From the NCBI RefSeq assembly GCF_045679555.1, contig NC_092120.1:11955805-12019804 (forward strand): 64,000 nt of DNA, read 5' to 3'. Made by a program: the position numbers and the translations under genes. The stretch is from Salvelinus alpinus. Taxonomy: Eukaryota; Chordata; Actinopteri; Salmoniformes; Salmonidae. The notes under the pieces were generated by a model. The model had not been told where the DNA came from, did no database searches, and saw only the letters and a program-made list of their open reading frames with translations. Below, piece after piece: positions 1,204 to 64,000 of the stretch (its first letter is position 1; each line of letters opens with the position of its first letter).

Positions 1204-2558
1204 AATGGAAAGGCTGCTTTCTGTTGTGTGAATGGAAAGGCTGCGTTCTGTTGTAGTGTGAATGGAAAGGCTGCTTTCTGTGGTAGTGTGAATGGAAAGG
1301 CTGCGTTCTGTTGTAGTGTGAATGGAAAGGCTGCGTTCTGTTGTAGTGTGAATGGAAAGGCTGCTTTCTGTGGTAGTGTGAATGGAAAGGCTGCTTTCTG
1401 TTGTAGTGTGAATGGAAAGGCTGCGTTCTGTTGTAGTGTGAATGGAAAGGCTGCGTTCTGTTGTAGTGTGAATGGAAAGGCTGCTTTCTGTTGTAGTGTG
1501 AATGGAAAGGCTGCTTTCTGTTGTAGTGTGAATGGAAAGGCTGCGTTCTGTTGTAGTGTGAATGGAAAGGCTGCTTTCTGTTGTAGTGTGAATGGAAAGG
1601 CTGCTTTCTGTTGTAGTGTGAATGGAAAGGCTGCTTTCTGTTGTAGTGTGAATGGAAAGGCTGCGTTCTGTTGTAGTGTGAATGGAAAGGCTGCGTTCTG
1701 TTGTAGTGTGAATGGAAAGGCTGCGTTCTGTTGTAGTGTGAATGGAAAGGCTGCGTTCTGTTGTAGTGTGAATGGAAAGGCTGCGTTCTGTTGTAGTGTG
1801 AATGGAAAGGCTGCTTTCTGTTGTAGTGTGAATGGAAAGGCTGCTTTCTGTTGTAGTGTGAATGGAAAGGCTGCGTTCTGTTGTAGTGTGAATGGAAAGG
1901 CTGCTTTCTGTTGTAGTGTGAATGGAAAGGCTGCTTTCTGTTGTAGTGTGAATGGAAAGGCTGCTTTCTGTTGTAGTGTGAATGGAAAGGCTGCTTTCTG
2001 TTGTAGTGTGAATGGAAAGGCTGCTTTCTGTTGTAGTGTGAATGGAAAGGCTGCGTTCTGTTGTAGTGTGAATGGAAAGGCTGCTTTCTGTTGTAGTGTG
2101 AATGGAAAGGCTGCGTTCTGTTGTAGTGTGAATGGAAAGGCTGCTTTCTGTTGTAGTGTGAATGGAAAGGCTGCGTTCTGTGGTAGTGTGAATGGAAAGG
2201 CTGCGTTCTGTGGTAGTGTGAATGGAAAGGCTGCTTTCTGTTGTAGTGTGAATGGAAAGGCTGCGTTCTGTTGTAGTGTGAATGGAAAGGCTGCTTTCTG
2301 TTGTAGTGTGAATGGAAAGGCTGCGTTCTGTTGTAGTGTGAATGGAAAGGCTGCTTTCTGTTGTAGTGTGAATGGAAAGGCTGCTTTCTGTTGTAGTGTG
2401 AATGGAAAGGCTGCTTTCTGTTGTAGTGTGAATGGAAAGGCTGCGTTCTGTTGTAGTGTGAATGGAAAGGCTGCGTTCTGTTGTAGTGTGAATGGAAAGG
2501 CTGCTTTCTGTGGTAGTGTGAATGGAAAGGCTGCTTTCTGTTGTAGTGTGAATGGAAG
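1204..2558. repeat. 30-bp minisatellite, about 45 units
   Basis: The unit begins aatggaaaggctgctttctg and ends ttgtagtgtg. There is one 27-bp degenerate unit (1204-1230), then 44 perfect-length units (1231-2550) and a partial one. Only two positions vary commonly: ctgcTttctg/ctgcGttctg and tTgtag/tGgtag. It probably lies in the scap intron upstream of 3268. Because 30 is a multiple of 3 and the unit has no stop in several frames, long ORFs appear on both strands; these are repeat artefacts. Confidence 0.97.
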
Positions 2559-3267: not shown

Positions 3268-6200
3268 GGTAGCAGCTCTGGGCCTGGCGGCAGGGGTTCT
3301 GCTGGTGCTGCTGCTCTTCTGTCTCTACCGGGTCCTCTGTTCACGCAACTACGGCCAGAACGGCGTGGCCCACGGACGCCGTCGCCACGGTGACCTGCCC
3401 TGCGACGACTACGGCTACTCGCCACCCATCAGCGAGATCTCCCCCCTGCTGCTGCGTGGACACAGCATGGTGAGAGCCTGGGCACACACACACGCTGACA
3501 CAAATACCATTGTTCATTTGCATGAATATTTACGAGTATCTCTCCTCTGCGTTCTCTATCTCTCTCTCTATGTCTCTCTCTATATCTCTCTCTCTCTATA
3601 TCTCTCTCTCTATATCTCTATATCTCTCTCTAGGATATAGAGTGTCTGGCGAGTGATGGCATGCTGTTGGCCAGTTGTTGTCTGGCAGGACAGATCCGTG
3701 TGTGGGACACTCAGACTGGAGACTGCCTCACCGTCATTCCTAAACATGGGTAAGACACGCACACACATACCATATCCACAAGGTCACCTTGGCCGATACA
3801 GGATTACATACACACACGTACATACACACACCTATGGACAGTTCATGCTTGTATTCATGCATAATGTTTACTTTTTTGGCCTGGCACCACCTACCTCTTC
3901 GGCGTACAACTTGTATTATTTTAATAATAAATGTACAATATTAACTTTACATATGTAAGTACAAGTCATTAGATGGGTTTTTTTCAGCATAGTTTTTATG
4001 TGTTCTCCCTTCGTCCCATTCCCATGTCCTTTATTTCTTCCTACATGTCTTCCAACCTGTTCTCCTATATGCATATCCAGCCTCCTGGTCTGAACATTAA
4101 ACTGTCTCTCTGTCAGGCTGCGGCGGAGTAGCAGCAGTGGCTGCTGGGAGCAGCGGGATGGTTGGGACGCCGTGGGTGTGGCCGAATCTGAAAATCTGGG
4201 GGGCGGGACAGAACCAGGGGGTGGGGTTTTCGACGAGGGCTACCCCCTCAGGCGGCGGACCACCCCACGTCCTGCCCTCTTTGAGAACCAACCCGACCTC
4301 ACCCCCCTCATCGACACCAACTTTGACTCCCAGCCCCCCTCCCACCACCTCCTCACCCCGCCCAGGGATGGCTTTGACTTCGGGGGGCTGGTGGAGAAGG
4401 CCTACCTGGAGCACGAGCTTCCCTCGCTGGGCCTCACTGCCTCCTACCCCTCCTCCTCACCCCTGTCGGGACCCCCTCCCCAGAGGAGACGCAGCCTGGG
4501 GTACATCCAGCCTCCTGCTCCACAGGGCCAGGGAACCCCGGACTGGGAAAGCGCCGTGTGGGCCATGGAGCTCCGGGGGAACCTCATCGCTGCTGGGAGG
4601 AGCAACGGCAAACTGGAGGTGAGACCGAATCCCAGATCATCCCCCCCTAGCCCCTACACCGTCACTAGACACTTTATTATGCTCCCTTGTAGAACAGAAA
4701 GAAACAACTGGATGGGTGCAGTGGGAGTGGATGAGATGGAAAGAGAGGAGGTAGTTATAATGAGCAAGCAGGAAACAATATTTGCAAGAGGAGAGAGAGT
4801 CAGTAGGAGAAATTGGCACAGAGAAAGTGAGAAAAGGCCAGGGCACTAATGTGTTATGTGGTTAGCTGTGGGACGCAGTGGAGGGCTCGTTACGCTGCAG
4901 TAATGTGTTATGTGGTTAGCTGTGGGACGCAGTGGAGGGCTCGTTACGCTGCAGTAATGTGTTATGTGGTTAGCTGTGGGATGCAGTGGAGGGCTCGTTA
5001 CGCTGCACTAATGTGTTATGTGGTTAGCTGTGGGACGCAGTGGAGGGCTCGTTACGCTGCAGTAATGTGTTATGTGGTTAGCTGTGGGATGCAGTGGAGG
5101 GCTCGTTACGCTGCACTAATGTGTTATGTGGTTAGCTGTGGGACGCAGTGGAGGGCTCGTTACGCTGCACTAATGTGTTATGTGGTTAGCTGTGGGACGC
5201 AGTGGAGGGCTCGTTACGCTGCACTAATGTGTTATGTGGTTAGCTGTGGGACGCAGTGGAGGGCTCGTTACGCTGCAGTAATGAAGATGGCGTCTCGGGG
5301 ATCACGGCCCTGGCCTTCCTCAACAACAGGCTTGTGGCGGCCAGACTCGACGGCTCTCTAGACTTCTTCACTGTCGACATCAACAAGCCTCTGGGCTTAC
5401 TGCAGTACAGAGGTGAGCTTCACACACACTGTCAAACGACCCAATGATGTCAATATTCACAGAGTGTACAAAACATTAGGAACCTGCTTTTTCCTTGATA
5501 TATACTGACCAGGTGAAAGCTATGATCCCTTATTGATGTCACTTGTTAAATCCACTTCAATCAGTATAGATGAAGGGGAGGAGACAGGTAAAATAATGAT
5601 TTTTAAGCCTTGAGACATGGATTGAGTATGTGTGTCATTGAGGGTGAAAGGGCAAGACAAAAGACTTAAGTGCCTTTGAATGGGGTATGGTAGTAGGTGC
5701 CAGGCGCACCATTTTGAGTGTGTCAAGAACTGCAACGCTGCTGGGTTTTTCACGCTCAACAGTTTCCCGTGTGTATCAAGAATGGTCCACCACCCAAAGG
5801 ACATCCAGCCAACTTGACACAACTGTGGGAAGAATTCGAGTCAACATGGGCCAGCATCCATGTGGAACACTTTCGAGACCTTGTAGATTCCATGAGTTGA
5901 GGCTGTTCTGAGGGCAACAGGGGGTGCAACTCAATATTCGGAAGGTGTTCGTAATGTTTTGTACACTCAGTGTATGTCTAATATGCTTGGAAAGTCGATT
6001 GTGTCACAATCTGTAAAATGTCAACAACTGGAGTCACCTGGTCATTTTTGGAGACGTTATTGACAGGGCAGTACAACGGTAGCTATAAATAGTGTAGTTA
6101 GCTAATTATCAAGTAAGGTGTCTCCAGACATGTTTACTTTTGACGTTTGTGACATTCTGACTTTCGGAGCGTTTTAACTCTAGACGTCTGTAATGTGTGT

Positions 6201-7778
6201 TATCTATGTTGGGTGTGTGTGTGTGGTGCCAGGTCCCCCCGGGCGTAGTAACATACCGCCCTCGCCCTGCTACAGCAGTGAGGATGTGATCTCATGCCAG
6301 CTGACGCGCTCGGTGCAGTGTGCCCACCAGAAACCCATCACGGTGCTGCGAGCCGCTGCCGGCAGAGTGGTAACGGGCAGCCAGGACCACACCGTCAGGG
6401 TGAGGGAGAACACGGTCACAGAAACACACGTGTATATCGTTCACCAACTGTTTCCATGATAATACAGTATAAAATCAACGCTCACACAATAAAACCCTGC
6501 TGTTTGTCCCTGTGTGTCAGGTGTATCGTCTGGAGGACTCATGCTGTCTCTTCACGCTCCAGGGCCACTCTGGGGGAATCACTGCCATCTACATAGACCA
6601 GGTTAGTCAATGGTACAGTCTGTATCCCCCCCATCGGGCAGTCCAATGGTACAGCCATGTCCCCCAAAGCTGTGTTCCAATGGCTAGACTGTTGTCTGGC
6701 TGCGTTCCAACCCAAAATCTGCTCCCTTTAAGAATTCCCCCAGAAGGTTAGTTATGCAATGGGCTCACCTTGCTCCTAAAATTCCACCTTTTCCAAACCT
6801 GTACCAGTCTTGCTGGGTGTGCAGGAGAGTCACTAAGGCACAGGCAGCCCAATATTATTATTTTTTACACTAATTGGTCTTTTGACCAATCACATCAAAT
6901 CATTTCAAATCAGATCTTTTTCAGAGCTGGTCTCATTGGTTAAAAGTCTGCCTGTGTAAACGCGGCCTAAGGTACTCCTTTCCGATCAAAATCCATTCAA
7001 GTGTAAGCCCCCCTTACTAGGGCACATCGTAGCAAAACGTTTTGCAACGGAAAATTAGGATTTCTTATGAACAACTCCAGGTAGTCCCTCCCCATAGCAG
7101 TCCACTTTTTTCTGTTTGTACTTAATGAATATGACCCATGTGAAGTATGTCATTGTCGTGTTGCAGACCATGGTTCTGGCCAGTGGGGGGCAGGACGGAG
7201 CAATCTGTCTGTGGGATGTGCTGACGGGCAGCCGGGTGAGCCACGTGTACGGTCACCGTGGCGATGTGACCTCGCTGGTGTGCACCACATCGTGCGTGAT
7301 CAGCAGCGGCCTCGACGACCTCATCTGCATCTGGGACCGCAGCACGGGCATCAAGCTCTACTCCATACAGCAGGTGCGTCTCTCTGTGTGTGTGTGGATA
7401 ATTTGGGAGAAATCAGGTAAACTAGTCTCCTGTTATTCAACGATAGTTTTTGCCTCTTCGCCTGCTTCTATCCCAATTTTTCCTTCCTTCTTTAAACCTA
7501 ACCTGTCTTTCTTTCTCCCCCCCCTCCCCAAGGAGGTGGGCTGCGGTGCCAGTCTGGGGGTGATCTCTGAGTCTCTCCTGGTGACAGGGGGCCAGGGCTG
7601 TGTGTCCTTCTGGGACCTGAACTTTGGGGACCTTCTCCAGACGGTCTACCTGGGCCAGAGCAGCGACGGCCAGGGGGTCCGCCAGCTCGTGGTGCTGAAC
7701 AACGCCGCCATCGTCTGCGACTTTGGCTCCGAGCTCAGCCTGGTCTACGTACCCGCGGTGCTGGAGAAGCTGGACTGA
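3268..7778 (+). CDS. scap: scap, 3' part: SREBP cleavage-activating protein (TM8 to C-terminus)
   Basis: Eight exons join in frame with GT-AG introns: 3268-3469, 3634-3749, 4117-4618, 5244-5412, 6233-6399, 6521-6601, 7167-7373, 7533-7778 (562 codons plus TGA). SCAP escorts SREBP from ER to Golgi when sterols are low; the cytosolic C-terminal WD40 propeller binds SREBP. The first exon encodes a hydrophobic helix ([20 protein letters not shown]) matching the last transmembrane segment. The WD part follows: [11 protein letters not shown] in exon 2, GSQDHTVR in exon 5, [14 protein letters not shown] and [19 protein letters not shown] in exon 7, and the C-terminus [13 protein letters not shown], nearly identical to the mammalian protein as I remember it. 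Exon 3 carries the Pro/Ser/Gly-rich insert, which diverges more. Earlier exons lie upstream of the window. Exon 4 has a repeated acceptor (see separate entry). Product assignment is firm; expression of all exons is inferred. Confidence 0.95.
3543..3630 (+). repeat. TCTC/TCTATA microsatellite in front of a scap acceptor
   Basis: Tandem tctctctc/tatatctc units directly precede the acceptor at 3631-3633 and serve as its polypyrimidine tract. Length changes here could affect recognition of exon 3634-3749. Confidence 0.85.
4849..5280 (+). repeat. scap: 54-bp tandem repeat x8 spanning a scap splice acceptor and the start of its exon
   Basis: Each unit consists of 17 intronic bases ending in the acceptor (atgtgttatgtggttag) plus 37 bases that equal the start of the true exon (ctgtgggacgcagtggaggg and onwards). 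The true exon starts at 5244 in unit 8. In the scap frame, splicing into any of the first seven acceptors would read 17 codons and then hit TAG, which is the next copy's acceptor. Units differ by CAG/CAC near the end (L/V in a shadow frame) and by gacgcag/gatgcag. Confidence 0.95.
5461..5972. mobile_element. internally deleted Tc1-like element (gtgtacaaaacatta family), copy 1
   Basis: Inverted ends gagtgtacaaaacattagga and taatgttttgtacactcagt. The inside keeps a transposase-like helix-turn-helix ([13 protein letters not shown]) joined directly to a C-terminal piece ([17 protein letters not shown]), so the catalytic core is deleted. It lies in a scap intron. Two related copies lie near 41916 and 54859. 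Confidence 0.75.
7010..7137. mobile_element. short TIR element (MITE), copy 1
   Basis: Core gcaaaacgttttgcaacgga, ending ttaatgaatatgaccc. It matches 18829-18953 over most of its length, and that copy shows inverted ends (gggtcgtactcatta / attgagaacgaccc). It lies in a scap intron, 29 bases before the exon at 7167. Confidence 0.6.
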
Positions 7779-59549: not shown

Positions 59550-59834
59550 GTGGGGACACACAATTCAGTCCCACTCTAAATCCTATTTTCCCTAACCCCT
59601 AACCCTAGCTGTAACCTTAACCCAAAAACCTAACCTTAACCCTAATTCCAACCTTAACCCTAAACCCCCAGAAGTAACATTTGACCTTGTGGGGACTAAC
59701 AAAATGTCCCCAGTTGGTCAAATGTTTGTTTGTTTACTATTTTTGTATAATTAAACACATCCACACACACTATTGTACAACTAATCTTGTGGGGACACAC
59801 AATTCAGTCCCAATCAAAATCCTATTTTCCCTAA
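59550..59834. repeat. cttgtggggac repeat, one copy plus start of a second
   Basis: aaccttgtggggacacacaa ... gaccttgtggggactaacaa at 59550-59735 encloses degenerate taaccctaacc runs; a second aatcttgtggggacacacaa begins near 59777 and runs into the satellite. Confidence 0.75.
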
Positions 59835-62800
59835 CCCCAAACCTAACCCTAACCCTAACCCTAACCTTAACCCAAAAACCTAACCTTAACCCTAACCCTA
59901 ACCCTAAACCGTACCCTAACCTTAACCCTAAAACTAACCCTAGTTCCTAGCCATAACCCTAATTCTAACCTTAACCCTAAAACTAACCCTAGTTCCTAGC
60001 CATAACCCTAATTCTAACCTTAACCCTAACCCTAAACCGTACCCTAACCTTAACCCTAAAACTAACCCTAGTTCCTAGCCATAACCCTAATTCTAACCTT
60101 AACCCTAACCCTAAACCGTACCCTAACCTTAACCCTAAAACTAACCCTAGTTCCTAGCCATAACCCTAATTCTAACCTTAACCCTAAACCTAACCCTAGT
60201 TCCTAGCCATAACCCTAATTCTAACCTTAACCCTAAACCGTACCCTAACCTTAACCCTAAACCTAACCCTAGTTCCTAGCCATAACCCTAATTCTAACCT
60301 TAACCCTAACCCTAAACCGTACCCTAACCTTAACCCTAAAACTAACCCTAGTTCCTAGCCATAACCCTAATTCTAACCTTAACCCTAAACCTAACCCTAG
60401 TTCCTAGCCATAACCCTAATTCTAACCTTAACCCTAACCCTAAACCGTACCCTAACCTTAACCCTAAAACTAACCCTAGTTCCTAGCCATAACCCTAATT
60501 CTAACCTTAACCCTAAAACTAACCCTAGTTCCTAGCCATAACCCTAATTCTAACCTTAACCCTAACCCTAAACCGTACCCTAACCTTAACCCTAAAACTA
60601 ACCCTAGTTCCTAGCCATAACCCTAATTCTAACCTTAACCCTAAACCTAACCCTAGTTCCTAGCCATAACCCTAATTCTAACCTTAACCCTAACCCTAAA
60701 CCGTACCCTAACCTTAACCCTAAACCTAACCCTAGTTCCTAGCCATAACCCTAATTCTAACCTTAACCCTAACCCTAAACCGTACCCTAACCTTAACCCT
60801 AAAACTAACCCTAGTTCCTAGCCATAACCCTAATTCTAACCTTAACCCTAAACCTAACCCTAGTTCCTAGCCATAACCCTAATTCTAACCTTAACCCTAA
60901 CCCTAAACCGTACCCTAACCTTAACCCTAAAACTAACCCTAGTTCCTAGCCATAACCCTAATTCTAACCTTAACCCTAAAACTAACCCTAGTTCCTAGCC
61001 ATAACCCTAATTCTAACCTTAACCCTAACCCTAAACCGTACCCTAACCTTAACCCTAAAACTAACCCTAGTTCCTAGCCATAACCCTAATTCTAACCTTA
61101 ACCCTAAAACTAACCCTAGTTCCTAGCCATAACCCTAATTCTAACCTTAACCCTAACCCTAAACCGTACCCTAACCTTAACCCTAAAACTAACCCTAGTT
61201 CCTAGCCATAACCCTAATTCTAACCTTAACCCTAAAACTAACCCTAGTTCCTAGCCATAACCCTAATTCTAACCTTAACCCTAACCCTAAACCGTACCCT
61301 AACCTTAACCCTAAAACTAACCCTAGTTCCTAGCCATAACCCTAATTCTAACCTTAACCCTAAACCTAACCCTAGTTCCTAGCCATAACCCTAATTCTAA
61401 CCTTAACCCTAACCCTAAACCGTACCCTAACCTTAACCCTAAACCTAACCCTAGTTCCTAGCCATAACCCTAATTCTAACCTTAACCCTAACCCTAAACC
61501 GTACCCTAACCTTAACCCTAAAACTAACCCTAGTTCCTAGCCATAACCCTAATTCTAACCTTAACCCTAAACCTAACCCTAGTTCCTAGCCATAACCCTA
61601 ATTCTAACCTTAACCCTAACCCTAAACCGTACCCTAACCTTAACCCTAAAACTAACCCTAGTTCCTAGCCATAACCCTAATTCTAACCTTAACCCTAAAA
61701 CTAACCCTAGTTCCTAGCCATAACCCTAATTCTAACCTTAACCCTAACCCTAAACCGTACCCTAACCTTAACCCTAAAACTAACCCTAGTTCCTAGCCAT
61801 AACCCTAATTCTAACCTTAACCCTAAAACTAACCCTAGTTCCTAGCCATAACCCTAATTCTAACCTTAACCCTAACCCTAAACCGTACCCTAACCTTAAC
61901 CCTAAAACTAACCCTAGTTCCTAGCCATAACCCTAATTCTAACCTTAACCCTAAAACTAACCCTAGTTCCTAGCCATAACCTTAATTCTAACCTTAACCC
62001 TAACCCTAAACCGTACCCTAACCTTAACCCTAAACCTAACCCTAGTTCCTAGCCATAACCCTAATTCTAACCTTAACCCTAACCCTAAACCGTACCCTAA
62101 CCTTAACCCTAAAACTAACCCTAGTTCCTAGCCATAACCCTAATTCTAACCTTAACCCTAAACCTAACCCTAGTTCCTAGCCATAACCCTAATTCTAACC
62201 TTAACCCTAACCCTAAACCGTACCCTAACCTTAACCCTAAAACTAACCCTAGTTCCTAGCCATAACCCTAATTCTAACCTTAACCCTAAAACTAACCCTA
62301 GTTCCTAGCCATAACCCTAATTCTAACCTTAACCCTAACCCTAAACCGTACCCTAACCTTAACCCTAAAACTAACCCTAGTTCCTAGCCATAACCCTAAT
62401 TCTAACCTTAACCCTAAAACTAACCCTAGTTCCTAGCCATAACCCTAATTCTAACCTTAACCCTAACCCTAAACCGTACCCTAACCTTAACCCTAAAACT
62501 AACCCTAGTTCCTAGCCATAACCCTAATTCTAACCTTAACCCTAAAACTAACCCTAGTTCCTAGCCATAACCCTAATTCTAACCTTAACCCTAACCCTAA
62601 ACCGTACCCTAACCTTAACCCTAAAACTAACCCTAGTTCCTAGCCATAACCCTAATTCTAACCTTAACCCTAAAACTAACCCTAGTTCCTAGCCATAACC
62701 CTAATTCTAACCTTAACCCTAACCCTAAACCGTACCCTAACCTTAACCCTAAAACTAACCCTAGTTCCTAGCCATAACCCTAATTCTAACCTTAACCCTA

Positions 62801-64000
62801 AAACTAACCCTAGTTCCTAGCCATAACCCTAATTCTAACCTTAACCCTAACCCTAAACCGTACCCTAACCTTAACCCTAAAACTAACCCTAGTTCCTAGC
62901 CATAACCCTAATTCTAACCTTAACCCTAAAACTAACCCTAGTTCCTAGCCATAACCCTAATTCTAACCTTAACCCTAACCCTAAACCGTACCCTAACCTT
63001 AACCCTAAAACTAACCCTAGTTCCTAGCCATAACCCTAATTCTAACCTTAACCCTAAAACTAACCCTAGTTCCTAGCCATAACCCTAATTCTAACCTTAA
63101 CCCTAACCCTAAACCGTACCCTAACCTTAACCCTAAAACTAACCCTAGTTCCTAGCCATAACCCTAATTCTAACCTTAACCCTAAAACTAACCCTAGTTC
63201 CTAGCCATAACCCTAATTCTAACCTTAACCCTAACCCTAAACCGTACCCTAACCTTAACCCTAAAACTAACCCTAGTTCCTAGCCATAACCCTAATTCTA
63301 ACCTTAACCCTAAAACTAACCCTAGTTCCTAGCCATAACCCTAATTCTAACCTTAACCCTAACCCTAAACCGTACCCTAACCTTAACCCTAAAACTAACC
63401 CTAGTTCCTAGCCATAACCCTAATTCTAACCTTAACCCTAAAACTAACCCTAGTTCCTAGCCATAACCCTAATTCTAACCTTAACCCTAACCCTAAACCG
63501 TACCCTAACCTTAACCCTAAACCTAACCCTAGTTCCTAGCCATAACCCTAATTCTAACCTTAACCCTAACCCTAAACCGTACCCTAACCTTAACCCTAAA
63601 ACTAACCCTAGTTCCTAGCCATAACCCTAATTCTAACCTTAACCCTAAACCTAACCCTAGTTCCTAGCCATAACCCTAATTCTAACCTTAACCCTAACCC
63701 TAAACCGTACCCTAACCTTAACCCTAAAACTAACCCTAGTTCCTAGCCATAACCCTAATTCTAACCTTAACCCTAACCCTAAACCGTACCCTAACCTTAA
63801 CCCTAAAACTAACCCTAGTTCCTAGCCATAACCCTAATTCTAACCTTAACCCTAAACCTAACCCTAGTTCCTAGCCATAACCCTAATTCTAACCTTAACC
63901 CTAAACCGTACCCTAACCTTAACCCTAAACCTAACCCTAGTTCCTAGCCATAACCCTAATTCTAACCTTAACCCTAACCCTAAACCGTACCCTAACCTTA
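59835..64000. repeat. telomere-like satellite with 128-bp higher-order repeat, continues past the window
   Basis: Monomer A (49 bp) starts ctaaccctagttcctagcca and ends ttaaccctaaaa; monomer B (79 bp) is the same plus ccctaaaccgtaccctaacc and a second ttaaccctaaaa. A and B alternate, so accgta recurs every 128 bases (for example 62345 and 62473); occasional B-B steps and an aaaact/aaacct variant occur. Nearly no other substitutions. No genes. Confidence 0.95.

What the first reader, a model, noticed from the sequence alone, without database searches (positions are those of the whole stretch)
4849..5280. A scap splice acceptor is tandemly multiplied eight times, with a built-in stop behind each decoy
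Each 54-bp unit contains a complete 3' splice site and the first 37 bases of the exon that encodes [13 protein letters not shown]. Only the eighth leads into the real exon. From the known upstream phase, use of any of acceptors 1-7 gives 17 sense codons and then TAG, because the acceptor's own TAG falls in frame. The intron and exon sides share taatg at the junction, suggesting the duplication arose by microhomology. The result could be a splice-competition element that lowers SCAP output or yields SCAP lacking most of the WD40 domain.
Basis: partly seen in the sequence, partly recalled or inferred. Interest (0 to 1): 0.8.

Follow-up and report, generated by a model that had tools for sequence, protein, structure and literature searches.

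The report
Splice acceptor multiplied by a minisatellite
One of this fish's two scap genes has eight tandem copies of a piece that straddles an intron-exon border; it looks like a recent, probably nearly harmless repeat expansion of a kind already known from lancelets and humans, and the same genome carries more of them in other genes.

Summary
The array is real: eight 54-bp units at 4849-5280, each with a complete 3' splice site plus the first 37 nt of a conserved SCAP exon. Only acceptor 8 (5244) keeps the frame; acceptors 1-7 give 17 codons, then TAG. The gene's paralogue elsewhere in this genome (C4) has a single copy with a 64/64 match, so the array most likely arose on this copy after the duplication. 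In the single-copy form two near-identical words, TGCACTAATG and TGCAGTAATG, lie exactly 54 bp apart, which explains the unit. The C/G difference recurs at the unit joints.

It is a splice-boundary minisatellite ("mirage"), described in amphioxus and also seen in human duplicated genes. It is not special to scap: the same gene copy has a fourfold donor array, the C4 copy has ten decoy acceptors before another exon, and myosin and kinesin genes here carry arrays of 34, 26, 12, 8 and 5 splice sites. Three of at most 200 unselected exon-hit edges were crossed.

Most likely the exon-proximal site is used, and leaky decoy splicing is removed by nonsense-mediated decay. A regulatory role is possible but nothing here supports it. 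No RNA data were available.

The parts
4843..5283 (+). 54-bp minisatellite, 8.2 copies, spanning an intron-exon boundary of scap
   Evidence: TRF; unit by unit
4849..5226 (+). seven decoy units; decoy exon starts at 4866, 4920, 4974, 5028, 5082, 5136, 5190; each leads to an in-frame TAG after 17 codons
5227..5280 (+). eighth unit, whose acceptor (AG at 5242-5243) leads into the real exon
   Evidence: the single copy in the paralogue (L002 1501-1564) matches a 64-nt stretch of the array exactly
5244..5412 (+). real scap exon [16 protein letters not shown]... (169 nt), donor gtgagc at 5413
4117..4618 (+). upstream scap exon ending ...NGKLE, donor gtgaga, intron phase 0
4897..4905 (+). first internal unit joint GCAGTAATG; the joints carry either the intron word (GCACTAATG) or the exon word (GCAGTAATG), traces of the founding microhomology
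3268..3469 (+). scap exon VAALGLAAG...GHSM (first base belongs to a codon split by the upstream intron)
3634..3749 (+). scap exon DIECLASDG...PKHG
6233..6399 (+). scap exon
6521..6601 (+). scap exon
7167..7373 (+). scap exon
7533..7778 (+). last scap coding exon with stop TGA

Best explanation
It is a young minisatellite that happens to straddle the 3' splice site of a scap intron, a so-called mirage. SHOWN: the paralogue is single-copy, and in it two words that match at 9 of 10 bases lie exactly 54 bp apart, one in the intron and one in the exon. SHOWN: the unit joints carry both versions of that word, and the variant pattern includes a repeated two-unit block (units 2-3 and 4-5). INFERRED: misaligned exchange or slippage between the two words made the first duplicate, and ordinary unequal exchange enlarged the array to eight. 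INFERRED: splicing mostly uses the exon-proximal copy (5244), because exon definition from the donor at 5413 favours the shortest exon (169 nt against 223-547 nt). The core acceptor sequences are otherwise equal. INFERRED: any decoy splicing yields a premature TAG and is removed by nonsense-mediated decay, so the cost is a modest loss of mRNA from one of two scap copies. No selected function is needed.
For: The search of the 2.37-Gb assembly returned two places, this array and a single-copy paralogue with 64/64 identity (the tool scores only best candidates). Founding words at L002 1501 and 1555, 54 bp apart. Colinear paralogues with Ks 0.082, Ka 0.015, Ka/Ks 0.185 and no stop or frameshift over 562 codons. 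Comparable splice-site arrays elsewhere in the genome: scap C35 four donors and scap C4 ten decoy acceptors; myosin L059/L087 34 acceptors, 26 donors, 12 acceptor-like sites; kinesin L101 8 acceptors; kinesin L084 5 donors, the true site included in these counts. Unit lengths 54, 54, 39, 40, 53, 52 and 26-28 show no preference for multiples of 3. No unusual RNA fold (z 0.12). Amphioxus Adh3 and globin data were taken by the authors to suggest that mirages do not disturb regular splicing (PMC3087553, passages read).
Against: No RNA data: use of 5244 is inferred. All eight acceptors are equal from -19 to +8, and classical minigene work (recalled) found that with duplicated 3' splice sites the one nearest the 5' splice site can win, which would make this allele a strong hypomorph. 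The C4 copy has ten decoys of its own, so it is not a clean back-up. With no outgroup, loss of an older array from C4 is not excluded, though gain on C35 is the simpler reading. The C35 copy may evolve slightly faster: of the 19 differing residues, 8 could be aligned by eye to 7lkf_A; 6 changed in C35 and 2 in C4, which is not significant.
Confidence: 0.72

Rival explanations
1. Splice-competition element: decoy acceptors 1-7 are used in a good share of transcripts, and copy number sets scap output through nonsense-mediated decay (a VNTR rheostat).
For: All seven decoys carry a complete acceptor and the first exon bases, and each leads to a TAG 169-493 nt before the next junction. The acceptor is weak in both paralogues (9 of 17 pyrimidines; the other seven acceptors of this gene copy inside the window have 8-17). 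An intronic VNTR in human TERT shifts splicing, and the authors tie it to expression through alternative splicing and NMD (PMC11830802, abstract and passages).
Against: Same kind of array in unrelated genes of this genome. No sign of selection on unit length or frame. Amphioxus mirages reportedly spliced normally.
Confidence: 0.17
2. Strongly damaging allele: decoys win because they lie nearer the 5' splice site, so this scap copy makes little full-length mRNA and is on its way to becoming a pseudogene while C4 carries the function.
For: Proximity effect known from minigenes (recalled). Slight excess of amino-acid changes in this copy, 6 against 2 by eye.
Against: The 562 codons compared are open in both copies and pairwise Ka/Ks is 0.185. 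The C4 copy itself has ten strong decoys. A young array would leave no time for decay, so the intact frame is only weak evidence.
Confidence: 0.07
3. Assembly artefact: the copy number was inflated by the assembler.
For: Copy number of tandem arrays is often wrong in assemblies; the amphioxus draft was aberrantly assembled for one mirage (PMC3087553).
Against: Units carry two variants in an interleaved order, and intron and exon words alternate at the joints. Arrays of different unit length exist at other boundaries.
Confidence: 0.04

Closest known systems
Amphioxus 'mirages' (Adh3, globins BflGb6 and BflGb9; PMC3087553, passages read; its reference 68 not held)
   Same: Minisatellite-like tandem duplication of an intron-exon boundary, at either the 3' or the 5' splice site, with splice signals in many but not all units, few copies and concerted evolution of units.
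   Different: Here in a vertebrate with an extra gene-copy pair, so a single-copy form can be read off the paralogue. Unit 54 bp against 150-160 bp in BflGb6 (Adh3 10-72 bp). No RT-PCR here.
Internal tandem repeats at exon-intron boundaries of human segmentally duplicated genes (PMC2812944, passages read)
   Same: Minisatellite units, about 30 bp on average, at exon-intron boundaries of recent paralogues, which can give alternative splicing and novel introns.
   Different: There the changes were tied to RNA evidence; here only genomic DNA, in an old conserved gene.
[quoted passage not shown] title seen only in reference lists; that it is IFI6/6-16 is recalled)
   Same: A minisatellite that multiplies a splice site within a gene.
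   Different: Donor, not acceptor; paper itself not read.
TERT VNTR6-1 (PMC11830802, abstract and passages)
   Same: Intronic 38-bp VNTR that influences splicing, with effects on TERT expression linked to alternative splicing and NMD.
   Different: Lies about 3.5 kb from the exon and acts, the authors propose, through G-quadruplexes; it does not multiply the splice site.

Membership tests
mirage (minisatellite-like tandem duplication of an intron-exon boundary) | tandem units, each holding intron end plus exon start | tested here: met
mirage (minisatellite-like tandem duplication of an intron-exon boundary) | one authentic copy at the exon-proximal end that keeps the reading frame | tested here: met
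   (only acceptor 8)
mirage (minisatellite-like tandem duplication of an intron-exon boundary) | homogenised units, with the outermost edges of the array escaping | tested here: inconclusive
   97% identity; the first unit follows GGGCACTAATG while all seven internal joints read CTGCA[C/G]TAATG
mirage (minisatellite-like tandem duplication of an intron-exon boundary) | copy number varies between haplotypes | not testable with these tools
   one assembly only; the paralogue has one copy
mirage (minisatellite-like tandem duplication of an intron-exon boundary) | regular splicing of the mature mRNA | not testable with these tools
   no RNA data
SCAP (SREBP cleavage-activating protein) | sequence match over the C-terminal WD40 half | tested here: met
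   7lkf_A, E 3.2e-238, query 1-562

The most novel reading that the evidence does not exclude
Splice-boundary minisatellites are pervasive in this fish genome, with thousands of splice sites multiplied 3- to 30-fold in conserved genes. That would make it a natural saturation experiment on how vertebrate spliceosomes choose among many identical competing sites, and a source of copy-number-tuned expression differences between duplicated genes.
Probability: 0.42. Interest if true: 0.72.

Novelty: new member of a known kind. Interest (0 to 1): 0.5.

Why it matters
Alone, the scap array is a tidy case whose origin can be read from its single-copy paralogue. It becomes useful because the same genome holds others: tandem arrays of 4-34 splice sites, at donors and acceptors, in conserved genes. 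Such arrays allow direct tests of exon definition against proximity in splice-site choice, show how duplicated genes may drift in expression, and could be starting material for new introns, as was proposed for amphioxus and human repeats.

Tried and rejected
A special RNA structure that hides the decoys was rejected: MFE -161 kcal/mol against a shuffle mean of -161.6, z 0.12. Design of the stop codons was rejected: two of three frames contain stops and the TAG is the acceptor's own. Unit length chosen as a multiple of 3 was rejected: 54, 54 and 39 are multiples of 3, while 40, 53, 52 and 26-28 are not (the irregular L087 array is left out). Splice boundaries as preferred sites for arrays: not supported. 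Arrays cover 3.5%, 5.5% and 7.5% of the non-hit bases in the kinase, myosin and kinesin loci, and 0 of 60, 1 of 60 and 2 of 80 hit edges are crossed. These are upper counts of true exon edges, because some hit ends are domain ends; several myosin loci overlap one another, so they are not independent. Exact 24-mer scans of bacterial/archaeal genomes and viral contigs gave 0 matches, as expected for fish DNA. No relatives of this genome are held, so conservation between species could not be tested. Literature searches; no title or abstract start in these capped listings concerned scap or salmonid splice-boundary arrays, and scap itself was never a search term. That the genome is a salmonid is my inference from the paralogue pair and the repeats; no tool names it.

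Full report
OBSERVATION. TRF places a 54-bp array at 4843-5283, 8.2 copies, 97% matches, score 840; within the scap part of the window only a 30-bp intronic minisatellite scores higher. The eight units at 4849-5280 differ at two sites only. Joining exons by their splice sites gives an open 562-residue C-terminal half of SCAP, matched by SCAP structure 7lkf_A over query 1-562 at E 3.2e-238. The upstream exon ends ...NGKLE at 4618 in phase 0. Using acceptors 1-7 gives [11 protein letters not shown][S/T]NVLCG and then TAG in 7 of 7 cases; only acceptor 8 reads on.

ORIGIN. A search of the window's own assembly (2.37 Gb, 928 contigs; the tool scores only best candidates) returned two places: the array itself and one 64-nt perfect match on contig C4. 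C4 carries a colinear scap paralogue with a single copy of the unit. There the intron word TGCACTAATG and the exon word TGCAGTAATG lie exactly 54 bp apart (L002 1501 and 1555). The seven internal joints of the array read CTGCAGTAATG (3) or CTGCACTAATG (4), as expected if misalignment between the two words founded the duplicate. Units 2-3 repeat as units 4-5, so a two-unit block was also copied. Between the paralogues Ks is 0.082 and Ka 0.015 (33 synonymous and 19 nonsynonymous differences in 562 codons), Ka/Ks 0.185, with one 2-residue gap. The simplest reading is that the array arose after the gene duplication, on a copy without visible decay in these codons. Without an outgroup, collapse of an older array on C4 cannot be ruled out. 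The 64/64 identity stands out against 87-88% in the two alignment blocks that flank it; constraint, a gene-conversion event or chance could explain it, and I did not resolve which.

ACCEPTOR STRENGTH. The real acceptor is weak in both copies (9 of 17 pyrimidines; the other seven acceptors of this copy inside the window have 8-17). All eight acceptors share the sequence from -19 to +8; units 3 and 5 differ at +9. They differ in the branch-point-like word at -22 to -16: CACTAAT before acceptors 1, 4, 6, 7 and 8, and CAGTAAT before 2, 3 and 5. Decoy use would lengthen the 169-nt exon to 223-547 nt and place a TAG 169-493 nt before the next junction. By the usual rule (general knowledge) that calls for nonsense-mediated decay, not for a stable truncated SCAP. 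The array folds no better than shuffles (z 0.12).

NOT UNIQUE. Just upstream of the window, the same gene copy has a 54-bp unit, 3.2 copies, 100% matches, that multiplies a donor: four ATGGAG|gtga sites after the exon ...SIDIRRME. Donors 2-4 would add 18, 36 or 54 residues in frame. The C4 copy has one donor. In turn, the C4 copy has a 39-bp array of 10.4 copies giving ten gttaac...ccag-type decoy acceptors 47-394 nt before the exon GKIDMVKSKWG; the window copy has one such site. This second scap array is intronic and does not cross the exon. The two exons are SCAP by sequence. So each paralogue carries its own decoy arrays, and neither is a clean back-up.

SURVEY. To see how common this is I used exon hits that were not chosen for repeats: the 30 best of 146 kinase matches, the 30 best of 155 myosin-head matches (several loci overlap), and 40 of 148 kinesin matches with 250-b flanks, picked by hand from the list before any repeat was looked at, mainly inner parts of the domain. 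Arrays with period >= 20, >= 2.5 copies and >= 75% matches cross 0 of 60, 1 of 60 and 2 of 80 hit edges, 3 of 200 in all. 200 is an upper count of splice edges, as some hit ends are domain ends. The three are L059 (myosin), L084 and L101 (kinesin). Reading them gives, true site included: L059 with 34 acceptor sites ending at the exon, then a donor array of 26 sites after the next exon that runs into L087, then 12 acceptor-like sites before the following exon in L087; L101 with 8 acceptors; L084 with 5 donors. L087 was fetched because L059's array ran off its end, so it is not part of the unselected count. Closest relatives among the fetched pieces lack the arrays: L082 matches several L084 units at one place and shows no array, and L056 shows none. 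No close relative of L101 was among the pieces. Arrays cover 3.5-7.5% of the non-hit bases in these loci, so no preference for boundaries is seen; crossing is about what a very dense minisatellite population would give. The sample is small and clustered (three arrays in one myosin gene).

MECHANISM. My best account is a neutral or mildly harmful mirage. The exon-proximal site wins through exon definition; leakage to decoys is destroyed by decay. [quoted passage not shown] Against it stands recalled minigene work in which the 3' splice site nearer the 5' site wins, and human cases in which boundary repeats do create new splice patterns (PMC2812944, passages) or an intronic VNTR shifts TERT splicing (PMC11830802, passages). 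Only RNA can decide.

KNOWN OR NEW. The kind is known: amphioxus mirages, with 6 and 3 units in two haplotypes of BflGb6, and both 3' and 5' boundaries affected; human internal tandem repeats at exon-intron boundaries, 27 intron modifications; and a minisatellite with multiple splice donors in an interferon-induced transcript (title seen in reference lists only). This array is a new member in a fish gene. The new point is abundance: if about 1% of boundaries carry such arrays, thousands would exist in this genome (gene and intron numbers recalled). That is an extrapolation from 3 of at most 200 edges.

Noticed in passing
L006 7620-7793 (C35:11953619-11953792, about 2.2 kb before the window start): 54-bp x 3.2 array that multiplies a scap 5' splice site (four ATGGAG|gtga donors); donors 2-4 would insert 18, 36 or 54 residues in frame.
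   Followed up: yes
L005 6250-6649 (C4:45056250-45056649): 39-bp x 10.4 intronic array of acceptor-like units (gttaac + pyrimidines + cag) 47-394 nt before a scap exon in the C4 paralogue; the window copy has one such site.
   Followed up: yes
L059 121-1505 and 1960-3174; L087 1-148 and 152-1424 (C1:14562229-14567402): Three splice-boundary arrays in one myosin gene: 34 acceptors, 26 donors, 12 acceptor-like sites, true sites included.
   Followed up: partly
L084 1-279 (C23) and L101 10-262 (C9): Kinesin genes with a fivefold donor array and an eightfold acceptor array.
   Followed up: partly
window 1204-2557; C4:45064416-45064872: 30-bp intronic minisatellite, 45 copies in this scap copy and 15 in the C4 copy, so it probably predates the split of the two copies.
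   Followed up: partly
window 5004-5067 against L002 1501-1564: The unit is 64/64 identical between the paralogues although the flanking alignment blocks are only 87-88% identical; constraint, conversion or chance.
   Followed up: no
window 59829-63997: About 4.2 kb of degenerate telomere-like CCCTAA repeats with a 128/256-bp higher-order unit, inside a 25-Mb contig.
   Followed up: no
L010 1-125 (C7): 49-bp x 2.6 array with an acceptor-like core (tttccccctccacag) about 1.4 kb from a kinase exon hit; whether it touches an exon was not tested.
   Followed up: no
L079 503-737 (C31): 71-bp x 3.3 array starting 16 b after a kinesin exon hit, each unit with ...taactccag; possible acceptor array of the next exon.
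   Followed up: no
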